A stretch of DNA of 23,894 nt. It comes from a virus. The stretch lies in IMG/VR virus record IMGVR_UViG_3300045456_000006, positions 1 to 23,894 of that record. The stretch is one strand, 5' to 3'. Numbering within the stretch: position 1 is the stretch's first letter; each line of letters opens with the position of its first letter. A model generated the notes under the pieces. That model saw only the letters and a list, made by a program, of their open reading frames with translations, made no database searches and was not told the DNA's origin. The position numbers and the translations under genes are program-made. Of this stretch, positions 1,014 to 14,880 are shown piece after piece.

Positions 1014-2822
1014 ATGTTCAGCAACTCACGTAGATTCCAAGTTCAAGGTAATACGATCAGATCAACAACAAAGTATTCACCTAAGAAGACCGTAGCAAAG
1101 TCCAGTGCTAAGGCCGAGACGGCTAGTCTATTTGGAGCCTACGGTCTTGGTGCTATGTCTGGCAACTCAACAATGAATGTCCACGCTACAGGGCCTCTGG
1201 CTAGCGTAGGCATGTTGAGTTACCTGGTGCCGCAGCAAGAAGATATGCTGCGGATGTACTATAGAGACATCTACTACTATGATTCAGTCTGCGGCGCTAC
1301 TGTAGACATGATTTCTAGTTTCCCATTCTCTGAGTACACTCTAACTGGTTGTGACCAGAACATTCTCAACAAGTACGAAGAGAGCATGGTGCGACTGAAC
1401 ATTCGCACCTTGATGCCTGACATTAGCACTATCTATTTGGTAGACGGCCAGTTCGTAAGCTCTCTAGTGTTCAACAAGAAAGAGAAGATCTTCATTGACG
1501 TGATTGTCTATCCTGTAGACAACTGCAAGATAGATCCTATTCCGTTCTACAGCTCTGACCCCATCATCACTGTTAAGAACACAGAGTCGATGGTAAAGTT
1601 CATGATGAGCAACGACAAGCAAGCAATGGCAATCAGAAGCCTGTTGCCTGCGTCGATGATCAGCACTCTTCGGTCCTCGGCTTTCCAGCTTGATCCGTTG
1701 ACTACTTTATACATGGCACGTCGTACTCTTCCAGGTGAAGAGCCTACTTCGTTCCTGAAGCGTGTTCTTCCAGTCTACCTTTTAGAGAAGACGCTATATA
1801 GAGGTACGATTGTTGAAGCTAACAAACGTCAACGCTCTATGCTTCACGTTCAGATGGGTGATGACACTCATGAATTCACACCAGAGGAGATGGCTGAGAC
1901 TGTCAATCAGTTCCAACTAGCTGACTTAGATCCACTAGGTGCTGTGATTGGTACGAGAAACAACGTACAGGCTACAGAGCTTCGTCAAGGTGGTGATTTC
2001 TGGAAGTGGACTGACACGATTGACGTCCTCACTCCCTACAAACTGCGTGCGTTAGGCACAAGTGAAGCGTTCTTGTCAGGTGATGCTACCTACTCTAACG
2101 TTGAAACTGCTCTCTCAGTTTTCTTAGAGAACGCAGACGCCTACAGGTCGTATCTGACGTATGAGGTCTTTACAAACAAGATCTTCCCGCTAGTAGCTGT
2201 CTCTAACGATTTTTTCAAGAAAGGGAAGAAGACCAATACTGATGATAGAACTAAGATGACCTATCAGCTTAACAACGCAAATGACTTGGAAATTCCTATC
2301 TTGCGTTGGCATAAACGTCTGGAAGCTAAGGAAGAAGAGAACGTAATGGACGTTCTGACTACCTTAGAAGAAAAAGGTATGCCAATTCCTTTGCGCATGT
2401 GGGCCGCCGCAGGTAAGGTTGACCTAAACGCCTACTATCAGGACCTGGAACAAGATCACGAGATCAGAAAGAAGATCAAAGCTCTAACTGACGCAAACGA
2501 GTATCTCAATCCTACTCAACCTGGTTCGAGCTCTGACGATGCTGAGTTTGCCGCCCTAAGACGCCTGTCCAATTCGTTGAGACGTAAAAACCTGCTCACT
2601 AGAGACTTTGGAGAACTAGGTGAAGTTAAGGGTACAACCAAGACAGGTAAGGCGAAGTACATCAGGAACCAGAAAGAAGCTAATGCTCGGGTAAACAAGA
2701 TGATCAGCCAAGCAGTAGTAGCACTAAACGACCCTAACATTCGTAGATCTGCATTGAAGAAAGTACAAGCCAAGTTAGGTACTATCCCTAACATCCTAGA
2801 AGTTCCTGCACCTAGGAGATAG
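1014..2822 (+). CDS. Portal protein
   Basis: A 602-residue protein placed right after the terminase, the size and place expected of a portal (the dodecameric ring at the capsid vertex through which DNA enters and leaves). Supporting features: an N-terminal disordered Ser/Lys-rich stretch (1-60), a body starting near MLSYLVPQQEDMLRMYYRDI that resembles the early helix of portals, the segment LPVYLLEKTLYRGTIVEANKR, then ADLDPLGAVIGTRNNV and LTPYKLRALGTSEAFLSGDA, which match the usual portal pattern of a clip region followed by a stem/wing that reads like 'alGvseeflsGda'. The C-terminal 120 residues are Lys/Arg-rich. ATG start 3 bases after the preceding stop. Assigned by pattern and synteny; no exact family named. 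Confidence 0.8.
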   Translation: MFSNSRRFQVQGNTIRSTTKYSPKKTVAKSSAKAETASLFGAYGLGAMSGNSTMNVHATGPLASVGMLSYLVPQQEDMLRMYYRDIYYYDSVCGATVDMISSFPFSEYTLTGCDQNILNKYEESMVRLNIRTLMPDISTIYLVDGQFVSSLVFNKKEKIFIDVIVYPVDNCKIDPIPFYSSDPIITVKNTESMVKFMMSNDKQAMAIRSLLPASMISTLRSSAFQLDPLTTLYMARRTLPGEEPTSFLKRVLPVYLLEKTLYRGTIVEANKRQRSMLHVQMGDDTHEFTPEEMAETVNQFQLADLDPLGAVIGTRNNVQATELRQGGDFWKWTDTIDVLTPYKLRALGTSEAFLSGDATYSNVETALSVFLENADAYRSYLTYEVFTNKIFPLVAVSNDFFKKGKKTNTDDRTKMTYQLNNANDLEIPILRWHKRLEAKEEENVMDVLTTLEEKGMPIPLRMWAAAGKVDLNAYYQDLEQDHEIRKKIKALTDANEYLNPTQPGSSSDDAEFAALRRLSNSLRRKNLLTRDFGELGEVKGTTKTGKAKYIRNQKEANARVNKMISQAVVALNDPNIRRSALKKVQAKLGTIPNILEVPAPRR

Positions 2823-2824
2823 AC

Positions 2825-3274
2825 ATGTCTGTCTACAAGATGAGTGTGTTCTGGTCAGCTTGGACCCCACAAGTTGCGACTAGGATCATGAGAGACGTGC
2901 TAGCAATTCAAAGGCTAGCTAAGGTACACAGAGCTCAATTCGTTGTTGCTGCAGATGAACTCCTACACCCAAAACTAGAGGCTGTAGGAGTTTTTTACAC
3001 GACTGACTTTGCTAAGCCTAGCTCAGTTCGTGTCTATGTAGACCAAGGCTCATGTATCCCTGATGAAATTGCAGCACGCTTACCTGAGTGTGCTAGCTTA
3101 GAAGTGGTGTCAATAAATGGAGAAGCTCCACCAGCCCCAACTCTTACTGTTGAAGAAGACCCTTACGCTGGTGTGAAGTTCTACCAAGACTGGAAGCGAA
3201 TAAACGAAACAATGCCTCTTGACAGGAAGGCGCCTCCTCCCAACAGTGAACCTTTGTTATCACCATTCCTATAA
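2825..3274 (+). CDS. Unknown protein, 149 aa, downstream of the portal
   Basis: Not recognised. It starts two bases after the portal stop with a good Shine-Dalgarno (GGAG at 2815-2818) before ATG 2825; an in-frame Met at residue 6 is an alternative. The first 105 residues read as an alpha/beta domain (helix TRIMRDVLAIQRLAKVH, strands QFVVAADELL, GVFYTTDF, VRVYVDQG). The last 45 residues are Pro-rich and probably disordered. No signal peptide or membrane segment. Position suggests a virion-assembly role, but nothing in the sequence proves it. A terminator-like hairpin lies inside this gene (see 2958-2996). Confidence 0.6.
   Translation: MSVYKMSVFWSAWTPQVATRIMRDVLAIQRLAKVHRAQFVVAADELLHPKLEAVGVFYTTDFAKPSSVRVYVDQGSCIPDEIAARLPECASLEVVSINGEAPPAPTLTVEEDPYAGVKFYQDWKRINETMPLDRKAPPPNSEPLLSPFL
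2958..2996 (+). terminator. Terminator-like hairpin inside the 149-aa gene
   Basis: A perfect 10-bp inverted repeat, AACTCCTACA at 2958-2967 and TGTAGGAGTT at 2983-2992, with a 15-base loop, is followed by a T run that completes TTTTTT at 2991-2996. This is the layout of a rho-independent terminator, but it lies within coding sequence, the loop is long and the stem is only moderately GC-rich. It could attenuate transcription from the packaging genes into the ligase block, or be chance. Confidence 0.35.
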
Positions 3275-3283
3275 GGATCACGT

Positions 3284-3688
3284 ATGGAAAGCGGAGTAAT
3301 CAAGTCTCTAACGCAAACTGCGGTAGACACTAAACAAGCGGTGGGAACAACCTTTGCTGACCTGTTCATGTGGCAGCAGTCTAGCCCATGGGATTTGGTC
3401 TGGATTGCTATAGTGTCTGCGTTCTTGGGTATGATTACCCACTGGGCAAAGAAGTACTATAAAGACGGCAATGGAGTTACCATCGTAGACTGGTTCTGGA
3501 GAAAGAATCCAAGAGCTACCTTGGTGGCTGTGTTGACAATGCTTGGTACTCTGTTTGCTACCTTTGCTCCATTAGACTACACTACAATCACCTTGTATCA
3601 GACTATTACTCAAGCCTTCACGGTAGGGTACGCAGCTGATTCGTTTTTCAATACGAGTCATAAGTTAGGTGAAGTAGAACAAGGCTGA
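3284..3688 (+). CDS. Small membrane protein, holin-like
   Basis: A 134-residue protein with ATG at 3284 and AAGGA at 3273-3277. Residues 36-54 (WDLVWIAIVSAFLGMITHW) and 77-95 (RATLVAVLTMLGTLFATFA) are clear membrane segments; a third weaker one spans about 100-119. Between the first two is a basic, aromatic loop (KKYYKDG...WFWRKNPR), and the tail is polar and acidic. Size and topology resemble phage holins that permeabilise the inner membrane at lysis. No endolysin is visible nearby, so holin is an inference; it could equally be another phage membrane protein. Confidence 0.5.
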   Translation: MESGVIKSLTQTAVDTKQAVGTTFADLFMWQQSSPWDLVWIAIVSAFLGMITHWAKKYYKDGNGVTIVDWFWRKNPRATLVAVLTMLGTLFATFAPLDYTTITLYQTITQAFTVGYAADSFFNTSHKLGEVEQG

Positions 3689-8344: not shown

Positions 8345-8711
8345 AGGTGATGACGTCTTGTTCAAAGGCGGACACTATATCTTGACAGTGAGGCAAGGTC
8401 AACCTGCGGTATTCCACGATGGTGACTACGTTTATTTCAAGTGGGGACAGCTCTCTCCTGATCCAAACAAAAAGAATGGGTGGATAGTTACTGACCAAGC
8501 TTTGGAACGAGACACTAATTTGATAGGGTACGAGGTGCTCATAGGTCTAAACGGAGAGACTCACGAGTTCCATCTAAAAGATGTGTCTGCTGATAAGGCG
8601 AAGAACAGAGCAGTGTTCACTCTAGCTAAGAAGCTAGGGATAGCAGTTCAATCTGTGTGGTTCAAGCTAAAGCAGTACCCTAACTCAATTACAGTCAAAG
8701 CAGTCAAATGA
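8307..8711 (+). CDS. Unknown protein, 134 aa, 'MxIK' family
   Basis: Not recognised. I place the start at ATG 8307, not at 8283, because CAGGAG (8291-8296) lies at the right distance and because the resulting N-terminus MPIKQFHT matches the M-x-I-K peptide of neighbouring genes. The body is beta-rich with aromatic residues (DDVLFKGGHYILTV, PAVFHDGDYVYFKW, YEVLIGLNGETHEF), then a helix (NRAVFTLAKKLGIAV) and a strand. The first half could be a small barrel, but I cannot name a family. The stop overlaps the topoisomerase start (ATGA, 8708-8711). Confidence 0.6.
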   Translation: MPIKQFHTRRPLKGDDVLFKGGHYILTVRQGQPAVFHDGDYVYFKWGQLSPDPNKKNGWIVTDQALERDTNLIGYEVLIGLNGETHEFHLKDVSADKAKNRAVFTLAKKLGIAVQSVWFKLKQYPNSITVKAVK

Positions 8712-10384
8712 AATCCCTAATGCAAGTCTTGGCAGTAAACCAGAAACAGCTAGAGTCTCTTATCAAGGTTCTGTACGCAGCCGTAGCTGTCATTGCAACA
8801 GATCAAGTGAATAAGAAGGTTGCCCAGACTGCAAGCGGGTGGGCTACAGGTGCGAAAGGCGTCGAGAAAGAACTAGGAACTGAGTTCCTTCCAACTCTCT
8901 TACAGATCATTCGTTCTGGAGAAGTGGACGACGATGTCCTAATTCCTGAAGCTAAACAATTCAGGCGCTTGATCGGATCAGAGCTCAAGTCTGACACTAG
9001 CATTGACCATCAAGAGCTGGAGATGGTGAAAGCCCTATCCACTTACTTAGTATCTAGGTCAGAAGGGGCTCTTAAGAAGGCAGTTCAGTTGTTGCCTGCC
9101 TTAGAAGAACGTGACTTGATTGACGCCTTCATCTTTGAGGCCAAGTCTCAAAAGGAGTTTGTCAAGCCGTTGCAGAAGATTGTCTACGCTGCAACAAAAG
9201 ACAAGAATCGCATTGCCTTAACTGCTGAAGAAGCTCAGCAACTAAAAGCTAGTCACCCAGCTGTTTACAAAGAGTACTTGAGACTGCGTAAGCAGTTCAA
9301 TCAAGTATGGAAAGATGAACTGCGTAATCTAGTCTTTGAGTCTAAGAAAAAGCTCATCAAGTTCCAAGACGCGCTAGACTACTTAGACCAACAAGGTATT
9401 CAACATACTTTGCCTCGTGGGTTTGTAGGTCTGATTGACGCTAACGGTAAGCTTTACACCGTAGCAGGAAAGGGGATTGCTGGATTTCCTGGTCCCGGCT
9501 TCAGTGTTCAGATGAACCCAGACTACAATCCGAAGGCAGACGACTCTTATGTCTTCACTACCATAAACGATGCTACAGGGGAGCGTAGTCAACACGTTTA
9601 TACCGAAGACTACAAAAAGCAAGCTACTCAGCAGAAGTTCGAGAAGGTAAAGAACCTAGACAAGGTTATCGACGCTGTTCGTAAGAAGTGGTTAGTGAAT
9701 GTCAGAAAGGGCGGGACTACGCCTGAGGTAGTTGCTTCTACTATTCTTGAACTGCTGTATCAGTTCAGTGCCCGTGTTGGAAGCACTGGGAACCAAGCAG
9801 AAGGTCAGAACACATACGGCATTTCAACACTGCTGGGCAAACACTTCAAAGTAAACGGTAACAAAGTTACTATCTCTTACATCGGCAAAGGCGGTGTCAA
9901 ACAGATACACCAACTAGATGGGTCGTCAGCTGAATCTAAGATGTTGATCCGCAACATCAAAGAGCTATTGGAAGGAAAAGGTCCTAAAGACAGAGTGTTC
10001 ACGTTCACAGGAAAGTCCGGCCGTGAACTGCCAATGACAGGCGCACTAGTCAACAGGTACTTCCAGAAGCTAGGTTCTCCTGTGACGGTGCACAAGCTTA
10101 GACACGTTCGAGGAACACGTCTGTTCAACGAGCTTCTAGAAGAGAACGAAGACAAGATCTTCAATGCGAAGAAACCCCTGAGTGAAGCACAAGCAGTAGC
10201 TCTGTTCAAGAAGTTAGCTACGCAAGTTGGGCAGATGTTGGGACACGTGAGAGGTGTTGGGCAACAACAGAAGGTAACGCCAGCAACAGCGATAAAGTCT
10301 TATCTTGATCCAATGGTCATGATAGGTTTCTTCGAGAAGCTAGGATATAGACCACCGAAAGGTCTCAAAGAGCTAATAAGATGA
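8708..10384 (+). CDS. DNA topoisomerase IB
   Basis: Relaxes DNA supercoils through a 3'-phosphotyrosine link. All five catalytic positions of the type IB family can be placed in the C-terminal half: R356 in YQFSARVGS with TYGISTLLGKHF following, K394 in YIGKGGVK, R465 in TVHKLRHVRGT, H513 in MLGHVRG, and the nucleophile Y532 in KSYLDP. F-TGKSGRE (about 431-440) is also typical. The protein has 558 residues against about 310-350 in pox- and bacterial-type enzymes; the extra is an N-terminal helical region of about 200 residues with no known domain. Overlaps the upstream gene (ATGA) and the homing endonuclease downstream (ATGA, 10381-10384). Its last 28 codons have a second, diverged copy at 11329-11415, so the present 3' end may have been exchanged. 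Confidence 0.88.
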   Translation: MKSLMQVLAVNQKQLESLIKVLYAAVAVIATDQVNKKVAQTASGWATGAKGVEKELGTEFLPTLLQIIRSGEVDDDVLIPEAKQFRRLIGSELKSDTSIDHQELEMVKALSTYLVSRSEGALKKAVQLLPALEERDLIDAFIFEAKSQKEFVKPLQKIVYAATKDKNRIALTAEEAQQLKASHPAVYKEYLRLRKQFNQVWKDELRNLVFESKKKLIKFQDALDYLDQQGIQHTLPRGFVGLIDANGKLYTVAGKGIAGFPGPGFSVQMNPDYNPKADDSYVFTTINDATGERSQHVYTEDYKKQATQQKFEKVKNLDKVIDAVRKKWLVNVRKGGTTPEVVASTILELLYQFSARVGSTGNQAEGQNTYGISTLLGKHFKVNGNKVTISYIGKGGVKQIHQLDGSSAESKMLIRNIKELLEGKGPKDRVFTFTGKSGRELPMTGALVNRYFQKLGSPVTVHKLRHVRGTRLFNELLEENEDKIFNAKKPLSEAQAVALFKKLATQVGQMLGHVRGVGQQQKVTPATAIKSYLDPMVMIGFFEKLGYRPPKGLKELIR

Positions 10385-11328
10385 GTAGAGTTCCGCCGGA
10401 AAGCCTGTTTAGGCGTTGCAAACTCTGTGGCGCTGACTTTAGCACCTCTCGGTCACCTAAGGCTTCTATGGCTCGTCACTTACGGTTTAGGCATAAAGAA
10501 GAGTTTGCAGCTTATTCGAAAGTCACTGACGGCTACATGGCAGAAGTGATTTTGAAAAACAAAATACCTACTTGTGCTAACCCTAAGTGCAAAGCTAAGG
10601 TTAGGCTACACGGATTTGAGTTTTTGCCACGGTATTGCTCTCCTAGGTGTTCTTCAGCTCATCAACACCTACTAGGAGGAGCTTTTTCAGACCCTGCTAA
10701 AGTAAGCGCTAGAAATAAAGAAATTTGGCAAAGGCCTGATTATCGCGATAGAATGCGGGAGATACACTCTACTCCAGAAGCAAAAGAGCGCAAAAGTAGG
10801 AGTGCTAGAAAGTACTGGTCTAAGCCCGGAGTAAAGGAGGCTAGGTCCGAAAGGCACAAGAAGTGGTGGCGTACAAAGTTTAAAGAGACTGAGTACATGA
10901 AGATGAGAAGCGAAGTTTCTTCTAGAAATGCATCTCACCTATTGAAACACAATCCAAACTTCGGTTATTCAAAGGCTCTAAAAGGAGGCAAGTACCGAGG
11001 GGTTCTTATGAGGTCTAGCTGGGAGATAGCCTTAGCTAAGAAACTTACCGAATTAGGTTTTAGATACAAGTACGAACCAGAGACGTTCAAACTAGACAAC
11101 GGTATTAGGTATACGCCTGATTTCTACTTACCTGAAGTAGACATCTACTTAGAAGTTAAACCTAGAAAGTTTTCTGCTGGACGTCCTACACAAAAACTCC
11201 GGGCGCTAAGGTCCAAATTTGGTAAACGCATAAAGTTTATTGACTTGGACGGTATAAAAGCCTTAAATTTTGAGAAACTTTTCGATCTAGTTCAGCCTTG
11301 TAGTCTCAAGCTAAACCCGATCCTCTAA
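10381..11328 (+). CDS. Free-standing homing endonuclease, zinc fingers plus PD-(D/E)XK nuclease
   Basis: A 315-residue protein with homing endonuclease architecture. Residues 13-38 form a C2H2 finger (C13, C16, H33, H38); 66-90 hold two further cysteine pairs (C66/C70 and C86/C90). From about 100 to 185 there are basic, repeated segments (ARNKEIWQRPDYRDRM, SARKYWSKPGVKEARS) like NUMOD3-type DNA-binding repeats. The C-terminus carries a PD-(D/E)XK nuclease: RSSWEIALAKKL (E215), RYTPDFYLP (D247) and YLEVKPRK (E258, K260). It starts on the topoisomerase stop codon (ATGA). Its codon choice looks looser and more A/T-rich than its neighbours (more AAA, TTT, ATA), which fits recent transfer. A diverged topoisomerase 3' end lies directly after its stop, marking the insertion point. 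Expected role: cutting topoisomerase genes that lack the element, so that it spreads. Confidence 0.78.
   Translation: MSRVPPESLFRRCKLCGADFSTSRSPKASMARHLRFRHKEEFAAYSKVTDGYMAEVILKNKIPTCANPKCKAKVRLHGFEFLPRYCSPRCSSAHQHLLGGAFSDPAKVSARNKEIWQRPDYRDRMREIHSTPEAKERKSRSARKYWSKPGVKEARSERHKKWWRTKFKETEYMKMRSEVSSRNASHLLKHNPNFGYSKALKGGKYRGVLMRSSWEIALAKKLTELGFRYKYEPETFKLDNGIRYTPDFYLPEVDIYLEVKPRKFSAGRPTQKLRALRSKFGKRIKFIDLDGIKALNFEKLFDLVQPCSLKLNPIL
10640..10687 (+). other. Bulged hairpin plus T run inside the homing endonuclease gene
   Basis: CTCCTAGGTGTT (10640-10651) pairs with AACACC (10664-10669) and TAGGAG (10673-10678): 12 base pairs with a three-base bulge and a 12-base loop, followed by TTTTT at 10683-10687. 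The 3' arm contains AGGAGG, a Shine-Dalgarno-like string that the hairpin would hide, but no start codon stands at the right distance. It could act as a weak terminator limiting endonuclease expression, or as a structural brake. Function not shown. Confidence 0.3.
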
Positions 11329-11415
11329 ACTTATTCTGACCCTGGTGCAATGGTCCAATACTTTGATCGTCTTAGTGTGAGACGCCCAAAGTTTTTGAGC
11401 AAGTTCAAGGAATGA
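11329..11415 (+). pseudogene. Relic of a topoisomerase IB C-terminus, including the catalytic tyrosine
   Basis: Directly after the homing endonuclease stop, in the same frame, are 28 sense codons and a TGA with no usable start. The translation begins TYSDPGAMVQYFDRL and ends RRPKFLSKFKE. It aligns without gaps, residue for residue, with the last 28 residues of the topoisomerase at 8708-10384 (SYLDPMVMIGFFEKL ... RPPKGLKELIR): 10 of 28 identical by my count, with conservative changes at most others (S/T, I/V, F/Y, E/D, K/R), and the same distance to the stop. The tyrosine matches nucleophile Y532. This looks like the original 3' end of the topoisomerase gene, cut off when the homing gene arrived with its own replacement end. 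Confidence 0.82.
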
Positions 11416-11416
11416 C

Positions 11417-11510
11417 ATGGCTATCAAACGTTTTCAGGCTATTGAAGTAAAAACGTAAGATTCTAACTAGAGCGGAGAGCGAACTTCGCCTTCTTGTTCA
11501 ACTACAGTGA
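11417..11510 (+). pseudogene. Broken 'MxIK' family ORF after the topoisomerase relic
   Basis: ATG 11417 has an excellent Shine-Dalgarno (AAGGA, 11407-11411) in the end of the topoisomerase relic, and encodes MAIKRFQAIEVKT before a TAA at 11456-11458. The start matches the shared N-terminal peptide of the genes at 5562, 6442, 7383, 7666 and 8307. A run of five A at 11449-11453 lies just before the stop; dropping one A continues the frame as RKILTRAESELRLLVQLQ to TGA 11508-11510, just before the next gene. So this is either a family member broken by one inserted base, a sequencing error in the A run, a programmed +1 shift, or a true 13-residue peptide. Confidence 0.45.
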
Positions 11511-11517
11511 GGTGTGT

Positions 11518-11664
11518 ATGGAATTTCCTCTGTTCGTAGCCGTCTTAGTCGTTGGTGTTGGCTTAGGCGCATATGGCTACCGCTATTGGCTTAAGCGTGA
11601 TCCAGAAGCCTTAGAGGCTTGGGCTAAGAAGCTCAAGGAAGCAGGAAAGAAACTAACCAAGTAA
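11518..11664 (+). CDS. Single-pass small membrane protein, 48 aa
   Basis: ATG 11518 with GTGAGGTG just upstream. Residues 4-20 (PLFVAVLVVGVGLGAYG) form one membrane segment or uncleaved signal anchor with no charged residue, followed by a basic stretch (YRYWLKR) and a Lys/Ala-rich amphipathic helix (PEALEAWAKKLKEAGKKLTK). By the positive-inside rule the C-terminus would be cytoplasmic. Not recognised as a named family. It is the last gene of the right-pointing block, five bases before the terminator hairpin. Confidence 0.62.
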   Translation: MEFPLFVAVLVVGVGLGAYGYRYWLKRDPEALEAWAKKLKEAGKKLTK

Positions 11665-11668
11665 AAGA

Positions 11669-11705
11669 AATGGGCACTGTTTTCACTTAAGAAACAGTGC
11701 CCATT
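11669..11705. terminator. Bidirectional terminator between convergent operons
   Basis: A perfect 14-bp inverted repeat, AATGGGCACTGTTT (11669-11682) and AAACAGTGCCCATT (11692-11705), with a 9-base loop. It stands in the 58-base gap between the last right-pointing stop (11664) and the last left-pointing stop (11723). On the minus strand the stem is followed by a T-rich run (TTTCTTTTAC), a good terminator for the left-pointing operon; on the plus strand the tail (CTTACG) is poorer. Confidence 0.85.
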
Positions 11706-11722
11706 CTTACGATCTGCTGACC

Positions 11723-12088
11723 TTACTTTACTAGCTTACCTTCAATGCCTCTTGCAACTCGTCTAGCAGTACGAGCTTCAAAAGCATCTAGAGCGCACTT
11801 CATGTGAAACAAAGCTCTATCGTTTTCTTCTGAGTGAAACTTGTTGTTCAGCACCTCAGTACGGTTGATCAAGACCGCTAGTAAGGCTTCGTTCGTCCAG
11901 CCGTTCACGCCTGCCACAGGTATAGGACCGTTTTGGAAGTTCAATTCACCTAGCTCTGTGTGAACTTCATTGTGTTCTCCTGTATCTGTATGCCTAGCCT
12001 CATAGTAGTGACCGTCTTCATAACCGTCATCTTCTTTGGTCTTGGCGAAGACCTCTAATCCACTCTGGTTCTTATAGATAAGCTTCAT
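11723..12088 (-). CDS. Acb2/Tad1-type hairpin domain protein, putative anti-defence nucleotide sponge
   Basis: I take ATG 12088 as the start (121 residues) because AAGGAA lies just upstream; the longer open frame to 12244 runs inside folE. The C-terminal half carries the pattern I know from the Acb2/Tad1 hairpin domain: VNGWTNEALLAVLINR (61-76), a second helix ENDRALFHMKCALDAFEART (88-107) and the ending ARRVARGIEG (108-117), as in relatives with NG-x-x-NEALLA-hydrophobic and RT-x-x-R-x-ARGVEG. Acb2 and Tad1 bind cyclic nucleotides (cGAMP-type signals, gcADPR) and so block CBASS and Thoeris. Here about 55 residues precede the hairpin, rich in strands and acidic residues, which recalls the N-terminal strand region of Tad1 more than the shorter Acb2. 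It is the last gene of the operon, 8 bases after folE. Assignment is by remembered pattern. Confidence 0.72.
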   Translation of the reverse strand: MKLIYKNQSGLEVFAKTKEDDGYEDGHYYEARHTDTGEHNEVHTELGELNFQNGPIPVAGVNGWTNEALLAVLINRTEVLNNKFHSEENDRALFHMKCALDAFEARTARRVARGIEGKLVK

Positions 12089-12096
12089 CGTATTCC

Positions 12097-12801
12097 TTAC
12101 TTTCCTACGTTGATAAGGCTGAAGAACTCTTGGCGAGGCATGTCTCGAGACTTGAAGACGCCGCCAAGCTGTGAGGTTACTGTGTCTGAACAAGAGTCCT
12201 CTACACCTCGAATCTTCACACACAAGTGCTCTGCTGCTATGCAAACTGCTACGTCTTCAGTCTCTAGTAAGTAGGTGAGCGTATGGAAAATCTGCGCGGT
12301 CAGCCGTTCTTGAATCTGGGGCCGGCGACAGAAGAAGTCTACAATTCGATTCAGCTTTGATAGGCCTAGAACTTTGTGCTTCGGAATGTAGGCAACATGC
12401 GCACCCCCTAGAATTGGCAGAAGGTGATGTTCGCACATAGACTGCACTGTGATGTTTCGTTCTAGAACCATCTCATCATAGCGCATCTTGTTCTCGACGA
12501 CCGTAGCCTTCGGGAAGTTGTTGTAGTCTAGCCCCCAGAACAACTCATTCTTCCACATTTTAGCAACACGTTTAGGTGTCTCTGCTAATGAGTCGTCTTC
12601 TAGATCCAAGTCCAAAGCAGTGAGCATAGAGGACGTACAATCCTCTAAGGTCGACATAACTTGTCCTTGTCTATTGAACTCTTCAGTAGACGAGTTCTCT
12701 AGTCTGACTAGCATTGGAGTTTCAACACCCGTGGTGACTAGGTGTTTTCGAACCTCAGCACCTGTCGTCGAATTGGCTTTGCTTGCTTCTGTCTTACTCA
12801 T
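12097..12801 (-). CDS. folE: GTP cyclohydrolase I
   Basis: Converts GTP to 7,8-dihydroneopterin triphosphate, the first step to 7-deazaguanines. At 234 residues it aligns throughout with the Escherichia coli type, including the N-terminal EVRKHLVTTGVETPM (compare 'EALVARGLETP'). Zinc ligands are C123 and H126 in MCEHHLLPI and C194 in AEHLCVKIRG. Other family motifs: LDLEDDSLAETPKRVAKMW (64-83), GLDYNNFPKATVVENKM, IPKHKVLGLSKLNRIVDFF (139-157), RRPQIQERLT, and TSQLGGVFKSR. The start overlaps the queE stop (AGGACTAGCATG) and AGGA serves as Shine-Dalgarno. Context with queE and queD points to deazaguanine DNA modification rather than folate. Confidence 0.95.
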   Translation of the reverse strand: MSKTEASKANSTTGAEVRKHLVTTGVETPMLVRLENSSTEEFNRQGQVMSTLEDCTSSMLTALDLDLEDDSLAETPKRVAKMWKNELFWGLDYNNFPKATVVENKMRYDEMVLERNITVQSMCEHHLLPILGGAHVAYIPKHKVLGLSKLNRIVDFFCRRPQIQERLTAQIFHTLTYLLETEDVAVCIAAEHLCVKIRGVEDSCSDTVTSQLGGVFKSRDMPRQEFFSLINVGK

Positions 12802-13682
12802 GCTAGTCCTGCGTATAGGTGTGTTTGAAGTTGAAAACGCAATCCATTCGACATAGCATATTTAGCTGTGTACTCATGATTGCGCTGATTCGCTTCCATG
12901 TCCAAGACTCCTGGTTCCCAAAATGATACCACTTCGTCTACAGTAGAACGTTCTTCGATTGACTTGTCGGTCTTCCCAGAGATCAGGCGCATCTTTTTAG
13001 GGATAGACTTGTACACGTTCATCGGACTCACAAAGATCTGTTTCCCGGAGCTATCTGCCCATTCAAACGCCCAGTCTGGGATAGACTCATAAGGGCTAGG
13101 ATTGTCTGCGTTTGTTGGAGCACACATTACAAACTTGAGACAGTGCGCTTGACGCAGCATCTGTTCTCTAGGCTTCAGGTACTTGGTAGGTCTTCCGTTA
13201 TCTTCGGCACACTTAGGACTAATGACAACAGTCACTGCGTCAGAGTTTAGGTTTACTTGTCGTATGCCGTTAGACTCAATCTGCACCCAAGGAAACTTTT
13301 TGCTAGCATCGTCTAAGAAGTCTACAAGGTTATCTTGAAGTGTGGGCTCTCCGCCTGTGATAACAAGTCCCACACCGTAGTAGTCTGGGTTCTCGTATAT
13401 AGCACAAGTAGGAACTCCTAAGCCTTGTTTCTGCCAATAGCTAAACAGTTCCGCCTTGATACGCTTATACAACTGATCAAAGGTCAACCATTCACCTTGA
13501 TCAAAAATCGTGTCACAGAAACTGCAAGCTAAGTTGCACTTAGCTAGACGAACGAAAACTGCAGGGCACCCGCTATACGGCCCTTCTCCTTGAAGTGTGT
13601 AGAACACAGATGTCACAAACAAGCTGTTTGTTGGAGCGTCCCTAAAGAACTTCGCTCCCACAATTTCGTTCGTCCCAAACAT
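12798..13682 (-). CDS. queE: 7-carboxy-7-deazaguanine synthase, radical SAM
   Basis: Makes 7-carboxy-7-deazaguanine (CDG) from 6-carboxy-tetrahydropterin. Family marks: TLQGEGPYSGCPAVFVRLAKCNLAC-type start, with the iron-sulphur cysteines C49, C53 and C56 in CNLACSFCDT; SAM-binding GGEP at 110-113 within VITGGEPTLQDN; ESNGIRQVN; VISPKCAEDN; LKFVMCAP; and the typical end RFQLQTHLYAGLA. The 294 residues exceed the short bacterial form (about 220) because of insertions after the cluster (about 60-105) and near 195-260. Shine-Dalgarno GGAG precedes ATG 13682. It lies between a dUTPase-like gene and folE. Confidence 0.93.
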   Translation of the reverse strand: MFGTNEIVGAKFFRDAPTNSLFVTSVFYTLQGEGPYSGCPAVFVRLAKCNLACSFCDTIFDQGEWLTFDQLYKRIKAELFSYWQKQGLGVPTCAIYENPDYYGVGLVITGGEPTLQDNLVDFLDDASKKFPWVQIESNGIRQVNLNSDAVTVVISPKCAEDNGRPTKYLKPREQMLRQAHCLKFVMCAPTNADNPSPYESIPDWAFEWADSSGKQIFVSPMNVYKSIPKKMRLISGKTDKSIEERSTVDEVVSFWEPGVLDMEANQRNHEYTAKYAMSNGLRFQLQTHLYAGLA

Positions 13683-13685
13683 CGA

Positions 13686-14423
13686 TTAATCTCCAACTGC
13701 GTTCTTCAGAATACGTACTTGGTACTCGTTAGCGAGCCAGTTCTTCACTTGCTCGATTGTAGGAGCAGTGTTCATGCCACCTACCCATTCGGCCAGGAAG
13801 TAGTTGTCTTCTCTGTCTTCTTTACCATTTTCAGACTCGGTTTCCCAAATCTTGGAATACTTGCCTTCCTTGTACCCGTGTTGCTGCCTAAACTTGTTCA
13901 GCACACTCTTACCGAGATACAAGGCGTAGAGCTTGTCGAAAGAAAAGTTGATGTACGTGCAAAGTTCAAACAATGCCTTAAACGCATCTTGCGTTTTGAA
14001 TTCTTCTTCAGACAGTTCTTTGCTCAGAACCTTTGACCTGCGAACTAGTTCTACCTGATCAAACTCCGTTTGAGTTTTGTCGGACGCAAGCAACGCCAGA
14101 TGAATGTCACTTGCAGCCTTTCCAATGTCCTCGAGGCTATGACTAGCGATAGCCTCGCTCAGCATAAAATGCAGCGCGTCTACTAGTTCGATTCGAGAGT
14201 TGGACCAGTCTCGTTCAGCTTTAGACCACCAAGGCAACCAAGAACTCTTGTTGAACTCTGCAACCTCTTGAATGGCTGCCATTGTGTAGCTCCACTCACC
14301 TGATCGCGCTTTGTCATGCCAGTCATTAGCGTAAGCGCTTGTGTTCAGCATCAGCTGATTTTCCAGCATCTCTACGATCATGGCAAAGTTGTTTTTGGAC
14401 TCTACGAAATTTATTGCTGTCAT
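13686..14423 (-). CDS. Dimeric dUTPase-like all-alpha NTP pyrophosphohydrolase
   Basis: The N-terminal half shows the all-alpha NTP pyrophosphatase pattern of dimeric dUTPases and T4-type dCTPases: E53 and E56 in AIQEVAEFNKSSWLPWW (metal-binding E-x2-E plus the aromatic W62/W65/W66 block), then E79 and D82 in RIELVDALHFMLSEAI. Role: hydrolyse dUTP (possibly dCTP) to the monophosphate, which supplies dTMP and keeps uracil out of DNA. At 245 residues it fits this family. Residues 110-240 are helical with a long polar loop (HGYKEGKYSKIWETESENGKEDRED). It is embedded between queD and queE, with spacings of 7 and 3 bases. Substrate cannot be fixed from sequence alone. Confidence 0.78.
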   Translation of the reverse strand: MTAINFVESKNNFAMIVEMLENQLMLNTSAYANDWHDKARSGEWSYTMAAIQEVAEFNKSSWLPWWSKAERDWSNSRIELVDALHFMLSEAIASHSLEDIGKAASDIHLALLASDKTQTEFDQVELVRRSKVLSKELSEEEFKTQDAFKALFELCTYINFSFDKLYALYLGKSVLNKFRQQHGYKEGKYSKIWETESENGKEDREDNYFLAEWVGGMNTAPTIEQVKNWLANEYQVRILKNAVGD

Positions 14424-14430
14424 TTGACTC

Positions 14431-14880
14431 TCACTTCATGTAGATGGCGCTGTTCGCGCCGTGTTCAGAAACCTCAACTGATACTAGTCGCACTCGACTC
14501 CCATAGCCCGCATCCTTGATCCACTGCTCTGTCACTTCAAACACTAGTTGTGCTGTTGCTTCACATCCAGTATTTTCTACTTCAATCACGCGAGCCAATC
14601 CATGCTTTCTGTCTAGGTCTAAAATGACCTCTTTCTTTGGATCGTCAGCTGCGACCAAAAGAGTATGATCAAACGTATCCTCTAAGATAGCTTTGAGAGG
14701 CTTCAGCCCTCCGAAATCAACTACCCAGTTTCGTACGTCTAGGTCGTTTGCCTCGAAGACAAACTTGAATGACAGAGCATAGCCGTGAATGAGACGACAA
14801 TGAGAGTCAGCGCGCCACTGTCTGAAGGCGCACGACAGGCCAATTTCGTGGCCAAAGGTCTTAGTTGATAGGTAAGGCAT
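14431..14880 (-). CDS. queD: 6-carboxy-5,6,7,8-tetrahydropterin synthase, QueD family
   Basis: Second step of the deazaguanine route, turning dihydroneopterin triphosphate into 6-carboxy-tetrahydropterin. A 149-residue T-fold protein with: GLSCAFRQWRADSHCRLIHGY (14-34), where C28 matches the catalytic cysteine of C-x3-HGH; WVVDFGGLKPLKAIL (52-66); FDHTLL (70-75) with the catalytic Asp/His pair D71/H72; GCEATAQLVFE; and SVEVSEHGANSAIY (134-147), where E139 binds the pterin. Zinc ligands look altered: the usual HGH reads HGY (32-34), and the usual His in the 'FSAAH' segment is Phe19; H27 may take over. I recall a subfamily of phage and bacterial QueD with the same SHC...HGY form, so this is probably functional. 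Its ATG overlaps the upstream stop (TAATG). Confidence 0.87.
   Translation of the reverse strand: MPYLSTKTFGHEIGLSCAFRQWRADSHCRLIHGYALSFKFVFEANDLDVRNWVVDFGGLKPLKAILEDTFDHTLLVAADDPKKEVILDLDRKHGLARVIEVENTGCEATAQLVFEVTEQWIKDAGYGSRVRLVSVEVSEHGANSAIYMK

What the first reader, a model, noticed from the sequence alone, without database searches (positions are those of the whole stretch)
10293..11415. Homing gene inserted before the catalytic tyrosine of topoisomerase IB, with a replacement 3' end and a relic of the original
Seen: after the homing endonuclease stop (11326-11328) come 28 codons and a TGA that align without gap to the last 28 residues of the topoisomerase (TYSDP versus SYLDP, then FDRL/FEKL, RRPKFL/RPPKGL), with equal distance to the stop and about 10 identities. 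Known: homing genes target conserved active-site codons, and a few mobile ORFs carry their own copy of the host gene's 3' end so that the host gene stays whole (I recall the mitochondrial atp6 case in Allomyces). Inference: the element is about 1 kb, from near 10300 to 11328; the working topoisomerase is a hybrid of resident body and imported tail. A hybrid topoisomerase tail would also remove the endonuclease's own target site.
Basis: partly seen in the sequence, partly recalled or inferred. Interest (0 to 1): 0.85.

Follow-up and report, generated by a model that had tools for sequence, protein, structure and literature searches.

The report
Phage nuclease gene carrying replacement gene end
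In this phage a DNA-cutting gene of the homing type sits just in front of the active-site codon of the phage's topoisomerase gene, the topoisomerase has a complete alternative ending, and a second, displaced ending still lies behind the cutting gene; a few other phages show the same layout at other genes, which suggests a natural 'cut, insert and repair the host gene' element.

Summary
Topoisomerase IB (8708-10384) ends SYLDP...R*. A PD-(D/E)xK nuclease gene (10381-11328) starts in its ATGA stop/start overlap. A second topoisomerase tail (TYSDP...E*, 28 codons plus stop) begins at the base after the nuclease stop. A profile of 22 relatives' tails finds both copies, and only those, in six frames (E 1.4e-5 and 2.9e-4). 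Relatives with a readable 3' end have one tail. Neutral decay of one copy from the other is rejected by simulation, so both tails evolved as working tails in separate lineages. No intron was found.

Surveying about 170 loci of the same nuclease family gave two clear independent cases, RusA 3' end (L114) and a mirror-image 5' end case (L169), and two weaker 5' cases (L060/L061, L184); control ORFs gave 1 weak hit in 358. Close precedents are fungal mitochondrial atp6/atp9/cox2/nad3 hybrids and the engineered home-and-rescue drive; I found no phage case in the papers searched.

Not settled: which copy came with the nuclease. Likelihood tests lean, insignificantly, towards the resident tail being native. 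Cleavage and target immunity are inferred. Verdict: a real, new phage variant of a known kind.

The parts
8708..10384 (+). DNA topoisomerase IB gene (558 codons), the split-and-restored host gene; catalytic residues R356, K394, R465, H513 in the body, Y532 in the 3' end
   Evidence: Pfam Topoisom_I E 8.6e-24; the five residues are invariant in the 8-sequence alignment; AF2 model pLDDT 87 matching human, Deinococcus and poxvirus topoisomerase IB structures
10298..10384 (+). Resident (functional) 3' end: 28 codons plus stop, SYLDPMVMIGFFEKLGYRPPKGLKELIR*, including the catalytic Tyr codon 10301-10303
   Evidence: profile E 2.9e-4; helices 535-545 and 551-557 in the model
10381..10384 (+). ATGA overlap: nuclease start codon and topoisomerase stop codon
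   Evidence: sequence
10381..11328 (+). Free-standing homing-type endonuclease gene (315 codons): N-terminal C2H2-like and Cys-cluster fingers, helical repeat region, C-terminal PD-(D/E)xK nuclease
   Evidence: phrog_22215 E 1.6e-21 and endonuclease PHROGs; E215, D247, E258, K260 invariant in 40 relatives; C-terminal fold matches TnsA Z 8.2, I-Bth0305I Z 7.6, VSR 7.3, I-Ssp6803I 5.4 (middling Z)
11011..11160 (+). Nuclease core (codons 211-260, RSSWE...PDF...EVK)
11329..11415 (+). Second, displaced topoisomerase 3' end (relic): TYSDPGAMVQYFDRLSVRRPKFLSKFKE*, in frame, starting at the base after the nuclease stop
   Evidence: best hit of the tail profile in the whole window, E 1.4e-5; no internal stop, stop codon at the homologous place; neutral-decay simulation 0 of 20,000

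Best explanation
A homing endonuclease gene has landed inside the conserved active-site region of a phage topoisomerase IB gene by double-strand-break repair between two phages with divergent topoisomerases. The unit that stands there now is [alternative 3' end of the gene + endonuclease gene]. The topoisomerase reading frame runs from the body into a complete alternative 3' end that supplies the catalytic tyrosine, so the enzyme stays whole; the endonuclease is translated from the overlapping ATGA; the other 3' end is left as an untranslated relic behind it. The relic gives the element a right-hand stretch of homology to uninterrupted topoisomerases, as the body does on the left, so it can be copied into new phages on co-infection. 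Shown: two homologous, separately evolved ends flanking the nuclease; single ends in relatives; the same layout at other genes in the same nuclease family, at 3' and 5' ends. Inferred: DNA cleavage at the topoisomerase site, homing, poor cutting of the restored gene, and (favoured only by the fungal precedent) that the resident end arrived with the nuclease.
For: Two tails far above chance and the relic the best tail hit in the window. Relatives from three searches with a readable 3' end have one tail only; the downstream ORFs listed show no such nuclease. Third codon positions differ most (10/29 identical versus 16 and 17), and neutral decay from the resident copy never gives a tail as family-like as the relic (0/20,000; RusA case 0/5,000): the copies were separated while both were selected. 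All five catalytic residues are kept in the present gene. Same layout elsewhere in the family: L114 RusA 3' end (E 3.9e-17, relic starting at the nuclease stop), L169 5' end mirror image (E 4.5e-10), and weaker L060/L061 and L184. 5 of 119 nonredundant nuclease loci versus 1 of 358 control ORFs. In four of five, nuclease and restored gene overlap by stop/start (window and L169 ATGA, L060 and L184 TAATG). L169's nuclease passes Pfam's cut-offs for NUMOD3 and Phage_endo_I. No Rfam intron.
Against: No empty-site relative closer than about 40% identity, so the insertion event is not seen directly and the imported copy cannot be named; likelihoods lean slightly the other way. Some members of this nuclease superfamily are annotated in Bacillus phages as T7-like endonuclease or Holliday junction resolvase, so homing activity is not implied by the fold. 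Most family members (about 164 of 169) do not show the layout. The geometry criteria were set after the first cases were seen, so the enrichment figure is partly post hoc. L169 shows no recoding next to its junction. Metagenome contigs only.
Confidence: 0.72

Rival explanations
1. The direction is reversed: body and resident tail are native, and the nuclease arrived together with a foreign tail fragment (11329-11415) as its right-hand flank, joined just behind the recipient's intact topoisomerase stop. The host gene was then never hybrid.
For: Resident tails fit their body trees slightly better than the relics in both the topoisomerase and RusA cases (5.9, s.e. 7.9; 10.1, s.e. 12.1). In the RusA tail tree the resident copy pairs with L126, a member of the body's nearest group, while the relic is closest to L129 and L132. 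ATGA overlap with an intact gene needs no hybrid.
Against: The differences are not significant, and a relic freed from selection would also fit worse. It needs a donor in which the nuclease already sat in front of a topoisomerase tail, so the same split must have happened there. The fungal precedents run the other way (PMC3630166).
Confidence: 0.2
2. Group I or II intron (or intein) carrying the nuclease, with 11329-11415 as the true last exon.
For: The nuclease is in frame with the relic; insertion lies at a conserved active site and before a Thr codon.
Against: No intron family match from 9500 to 12000; the body already ends in a homologous tail with the catalytic Tyr; the nuclease ends in a stop without intein C-terminal residues.
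Confidence: 0.02
3. Local tandem duplication of the topoisomerase 3' end with the nuclease landing between the copies.
For: Two copies flank the nuclease.
Against: Copies are only 49% identical in DNA, yet both keep frame, length, stop and family residues; neutral decay to that level never gave this in 20,000 simulations.
Confidence: 0.03
4. Chimeric metagenome assembly that joined two phages at the topoisomerase.
For: The window is a single 23.9 kb metagenomic virus contig.
Against: The nuclease abuts both copies exactly, with stop/start overlap, and the same exact layout recurs in other contigs from other samples at other genes.
Confidence: 0.03

Closest known systems
Mobile ORF gene hybrids of fungal mitochondria (Allomyces macrogynus atp6; Glomus sp. 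atp6, atp9, cox2, nad3; Rhizopus oryzae atp9; Mortierella verticillata cox2), PMC3630166
   Same: Body + alternative C-terminal end + endonuclease ORF + displaced C-terminal copy downstream; in the atp6 and cox2 cases the displaced copy is not expressed.
   Different: LAGLIDADG or GIY-YIG nucleases in mitochondria; there native and foreign ends were told apart with close relatives. Here a PD-(D/E)xK nuclease in phages, and the family also has the mirror form with 5' ends.
Free-standing homing genes that split phage genes (T4 mobA in topoisomerase gene 60, Aeh1 mobE in nrdA), PMC2988022
   Different: Those leave a gene in pieces whose polypeptides reassemble; here the gene is one uninterrupted frame with a complete alternative end. 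HNH nucleases, type II topoisomerase.
Engineered home-and-rescue (HomeR) drive at Drosophila PolG2, PMC7968924
   Same: Nuclease-guided cargo plus re-coded 3' end of the target gene between two homology arms.
   Different: Synthetic, Cas9-based, in flies.
I-Bth0305I and I-Ssp6803I homing endonucleases
   Same: Restriction-endonuclease-like catalytic fold (Z 7.6 and 5.4).
   Different: Intron-encoded (own knowledge); no replaced gene ends known to me; sequence relation to this family not shown.
T7 endonuclease I-like phage nucleases (Pfam Phage_endo_I; Bacillus phages Curly and Finn, SP-15)
   Same: Same nuclease core by sequence.
   Different: Many are annotated as Holliday junction resolvases, not shown to be inserted in genes.

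Membership tests
Type IB DNA topoisomerase | R-K-R-H/N-Y catalytic set in a Topoisom_I core | tested here: met
   R356, K394, R465, H513, Y532 invariant in the 8-sequence alignment; Pfam E 8.6e-24; structure matches
Type IB DNA topoisomerase | Relaxes DNA through a 3'-phosphotyrosine | not testable with these tools
   needs purified enzyme
PD-(D/E)xK nuclease | PD...(D/E)xK motif with alpha-helix Glu | tested here: met
   E215, D247, E258, K260 invariant among 40 relatives
PD-(D/E)xK nuclease | Restriction-endonuclease-like fold | tested here: met
   residues 196-313 align with TnsA, VSR, Hjc and I-Bth0305I at Z 5-8; Z is middling, but the top rows agree with one another and pLDDT of the core is about 95
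Free-standing homing endonuclease | Gene inserted in a host gene, absent from relatives at that site | tested here: met
   relatives have single tails; no such nuclease in the downstream ORFs listed
Free-standing homing endonuclease | Site-specific cleavage of the uninterrupted allele and biased inheritance | not testable with these tools
   needs a cleavage assay or co-infection
Free-standing homing endonuclease | Modular DNA-binding parts such as NUMOD | tested here: inconclusive
   no NUMOD hit in the window nuclease; NUMOD3 above cut-off in relative L169, below cut-off in L114 and L184
Mobile ORF gene hybrid (Allomyces/Glomus type) | Two homologous gene ends flanking an endonuclease ORF, one in frame with the body | tested here: met
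Mobile ORF gene hybrid (Allomyces/Glomus type) | Displaced copy is the native one, resident copy foreign | tested here: inconclusive
   likelihood differences not significant, sign opposite
Group I/II intron | Intron core structure | tested here: not met
   no Rfam intron match at E<=1 in 9500-12000

The most novel reading that the evidence does not exclude
A class of natural 'home-and-rescue' elements in phages: PD-(D/E)xK homing genes that repeatedly and independently pick up a working copy of either the 3' or the 5' end of the gene they break, so that invasion of essential genes costs the host little and host genes become mosaics.
Probability: 0.5. Interest if true: 0.85.

Novelty: new variant of a known kind. 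Interest (0 to 1): 0.72.

Why it matters
Homing genes in phages are known to sit between genes, in introns or inteins, or to leave genes in pieces. A route in which the nuclease gene is coupled to a complete end of the broken gene would let it occupy the most conserved codons of essential genes without splicing, would make mosaic enzymes by gene conversion, and would be a natural counterpart of the engineered home-and-rescue drives. The 3' and 5' forms in one nuclease family make the idea directly testable by genome scans and by simple cleavage and co-infection assays.

Tried and rejected
Close empty-site relative: none. Trees of 28-residue tails are unresolved. First duplication scan returned nothing because of a wrong BLAST option; one search was swamped by self-overlap hits; both discarded. 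Motura's gene after its topoisomerase has a weak Cys/His-finger match (E 0.07) to the nuclease N-terminus, taken as chance. GC3 of body, tail, nuclease and relic (0.49, 0.35, 0.41, 0.41) is too short a sample to assign origin. The 50 further nuclease loci gave no new case. Literature searches found no phage example, which is weak evidence as most subscription papers are missing.

Full report
WHAT IS THERE. The window is a whole 23,894-base metagenomic virus contig with no near match among 50,697 phage records. Topoisomerase IB (8708-10384) is of the jumbo-phage kind found in Achromobacter phage Motura (40% identical), NCTB, PaBG, Lu11 and others. Its stop overlaps the start of a 315-codon nuclease gene in ATGA (10381-10384). 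The nuclease ends with TAA at 11326-11328, and the next base opens a second topoisomerase 3' end, 28 codons and TGA (11329-11415).

CHANCE. The two ends share 10 of 28 residues and score 52 without gaps; no shuffle in 100,000 passed 33 and no other 28-mer of the window passes 19. A profile made from 22 relatives' ends, without the window, finds 11329-11415 first (E 1.4e-5) and the resident end second (2.9e-4) in six frames; the next is 0.98. Joining body and relic gives exactly 558 codons. The relatives with a readable 3' end have one end each, and the ORFs listed behind them are unrelated genes.

BOTH ENDS WERE WORKING ENDS. Between the two copies third codon positions are the most different (10/29 identical, against 16 and 17). 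Mutating the resident end neutrally to the same 43/87 identity left an open frame in 7,516 of 20,000 runs, but none reached the relic's family score. So the relic is not a decayed local duplicate; it comes from another topoisomerase lineage and was displaced recently enough to keep its frame. All five catalytic residues of the present gene are intact, and its model is a good topoisomerase IB (pLDDT 87), with the Tyr supplied by the resident end.

THE NUCLEASE. Its C-terminal domain belongs with T7 endonuclease I-like phage nucleases. E215, D247, E258 and K260 are invariant in 40 relatives. The modelled domain lies among restriction-endonuclease-like folds, including the homing enzymes I-Bth0305I and I-Ssp6803I (Z of 5-8 is middling). 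The N-terminal half has finger-like cysteine clusters and helical repeats (sequence). Relative L169 has NUMOD3, a motif typical of homing enzymes (own knowledge), above Pfam's cut-off. Related phage proteins annotated as resolvases are a reason for caution.

OTHER CASES. Three collection scans gave about 170 nonredundant nuclease loci. L114 (139 kb contig): RusA resolvase gene, 1815-2408; nuclease 2512-3447; second RusA end from the nuclease stop to 3601, 53% identical over 47 residues, while seven RusA relatives have one end each. L169: mirror image; a 5' fragment (590-669, MRTYQGLVMSLEPNQVFVFGSNPEGM*), nuclease 719-1516, then a whole gene (phrog_2072) with an alternative 5' end starting in an ATGA overlap. 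L060/L061 and L184 show 12-13 residue 5' fragments with the same geometry; these are weaker. With the same flank scan, 5 of 119 nuclease loci qualify against 1 of 358 other ORFs (Fisher p 0.004; 0.014 if the 50 extra loci without a case are added). The criteria were shaped by the first cases, so this figure is partly post hoc; L114 and L169 stand on their own E-values.

MECHANISM. The layout follows from double-strand-break repair between two phages with diverged genes: one homologous side is resolved inside the gene, the other is joined at the cut, leaving gene body + one complete end + nuclease + the other end. Co-conversion of flanks by phage homing nucleases is established (PMC2988022). 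Shown here: layout, separate histories of the ends, recurrence. Inferred: cutting, homing, immunity of the restored gene. Which end came with the nuclease is open: the resident end fits the body tree better by 5.9 (s.e. 7.9), and in RusA by 10.1 (s.e. 12.1); neither is significant, and a relic released from selection would also fit worse. Recoding against self-cutting is possible here (ends 49% identical in DNA) but is not visible next to the junction in L169 (19 of 20 bases equal, sequences).

KNOWN OR NEW. The same four-part layout is published for fungal mitochondria: Allomyces atp6 and Glomus atp6, atp9, cox2 and nad3, with native and foreign ends told apart by close relatives (PMC3630166). 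Phage homing genes that break genes (T4 mobA in a topoisomerase, Aeh1 mobE) leave pieces (PMC2988022). The engineered HomeR drive uses a re-coded 3' end between homology arms (PMC7968924). I found no phage example and no 5' form in the searchable papers. I file it as a new variant of a known kind.

Noticed in passing
L114:1815-3601 (IMGVR_UViG_3300038321_000157): RusA Holliday junction resolvase gene with the same nuclease family behind it and a second RusA 3' end directly after the nuclease stop.
   Followed up: yes
L169:590-1980 (IMGVR_UViG_3300008448_013814): Mirror-image case: displaced 5' end of a phrog_2072 gene, then the nuclease, then the whole gene with an alternative 5' end in ATGA overlap.
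   Followed up: yes
L060:2392-4157 and L184:2522-5261: Weaker 5' cases: 12-13 residues of the downstream gene's start repeated just before the nuclease (L184) or fused to its N-terminus (L060, also L061).
   Followed up: partly
L114:2420-2488: Rfam int-alpA RNA (RF02996, 37.2 bits, above its cut-off) lies between the rusA stop and the nuclease start.
   Followed up: no
window 12097-14880, - strand: GTP cyclohydrolase I, a radical SAM protein, dUTPase and a PTPS/QueD-like gene in a row, suggesting a 7-deazaguanine (preQ0-type) pathway and possibly modified phage DNA.
   Followed up: no
window 11416-11705: Small ORFs after the relic, then an inverted repeat (AAATGGGCACTGTTT...AAACAGTGCCCATT, about 11668-11704) between convergent gene blocks, probably a two-way terminator.
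   Followed up: no
L002:4658-4903 (Motura): The gene right behind the Motura topoisomerase has a Cys/His finger weakly like the window nuclease's N-terminus (50% over 28 residues, E 0.07).
   Followed up: partly
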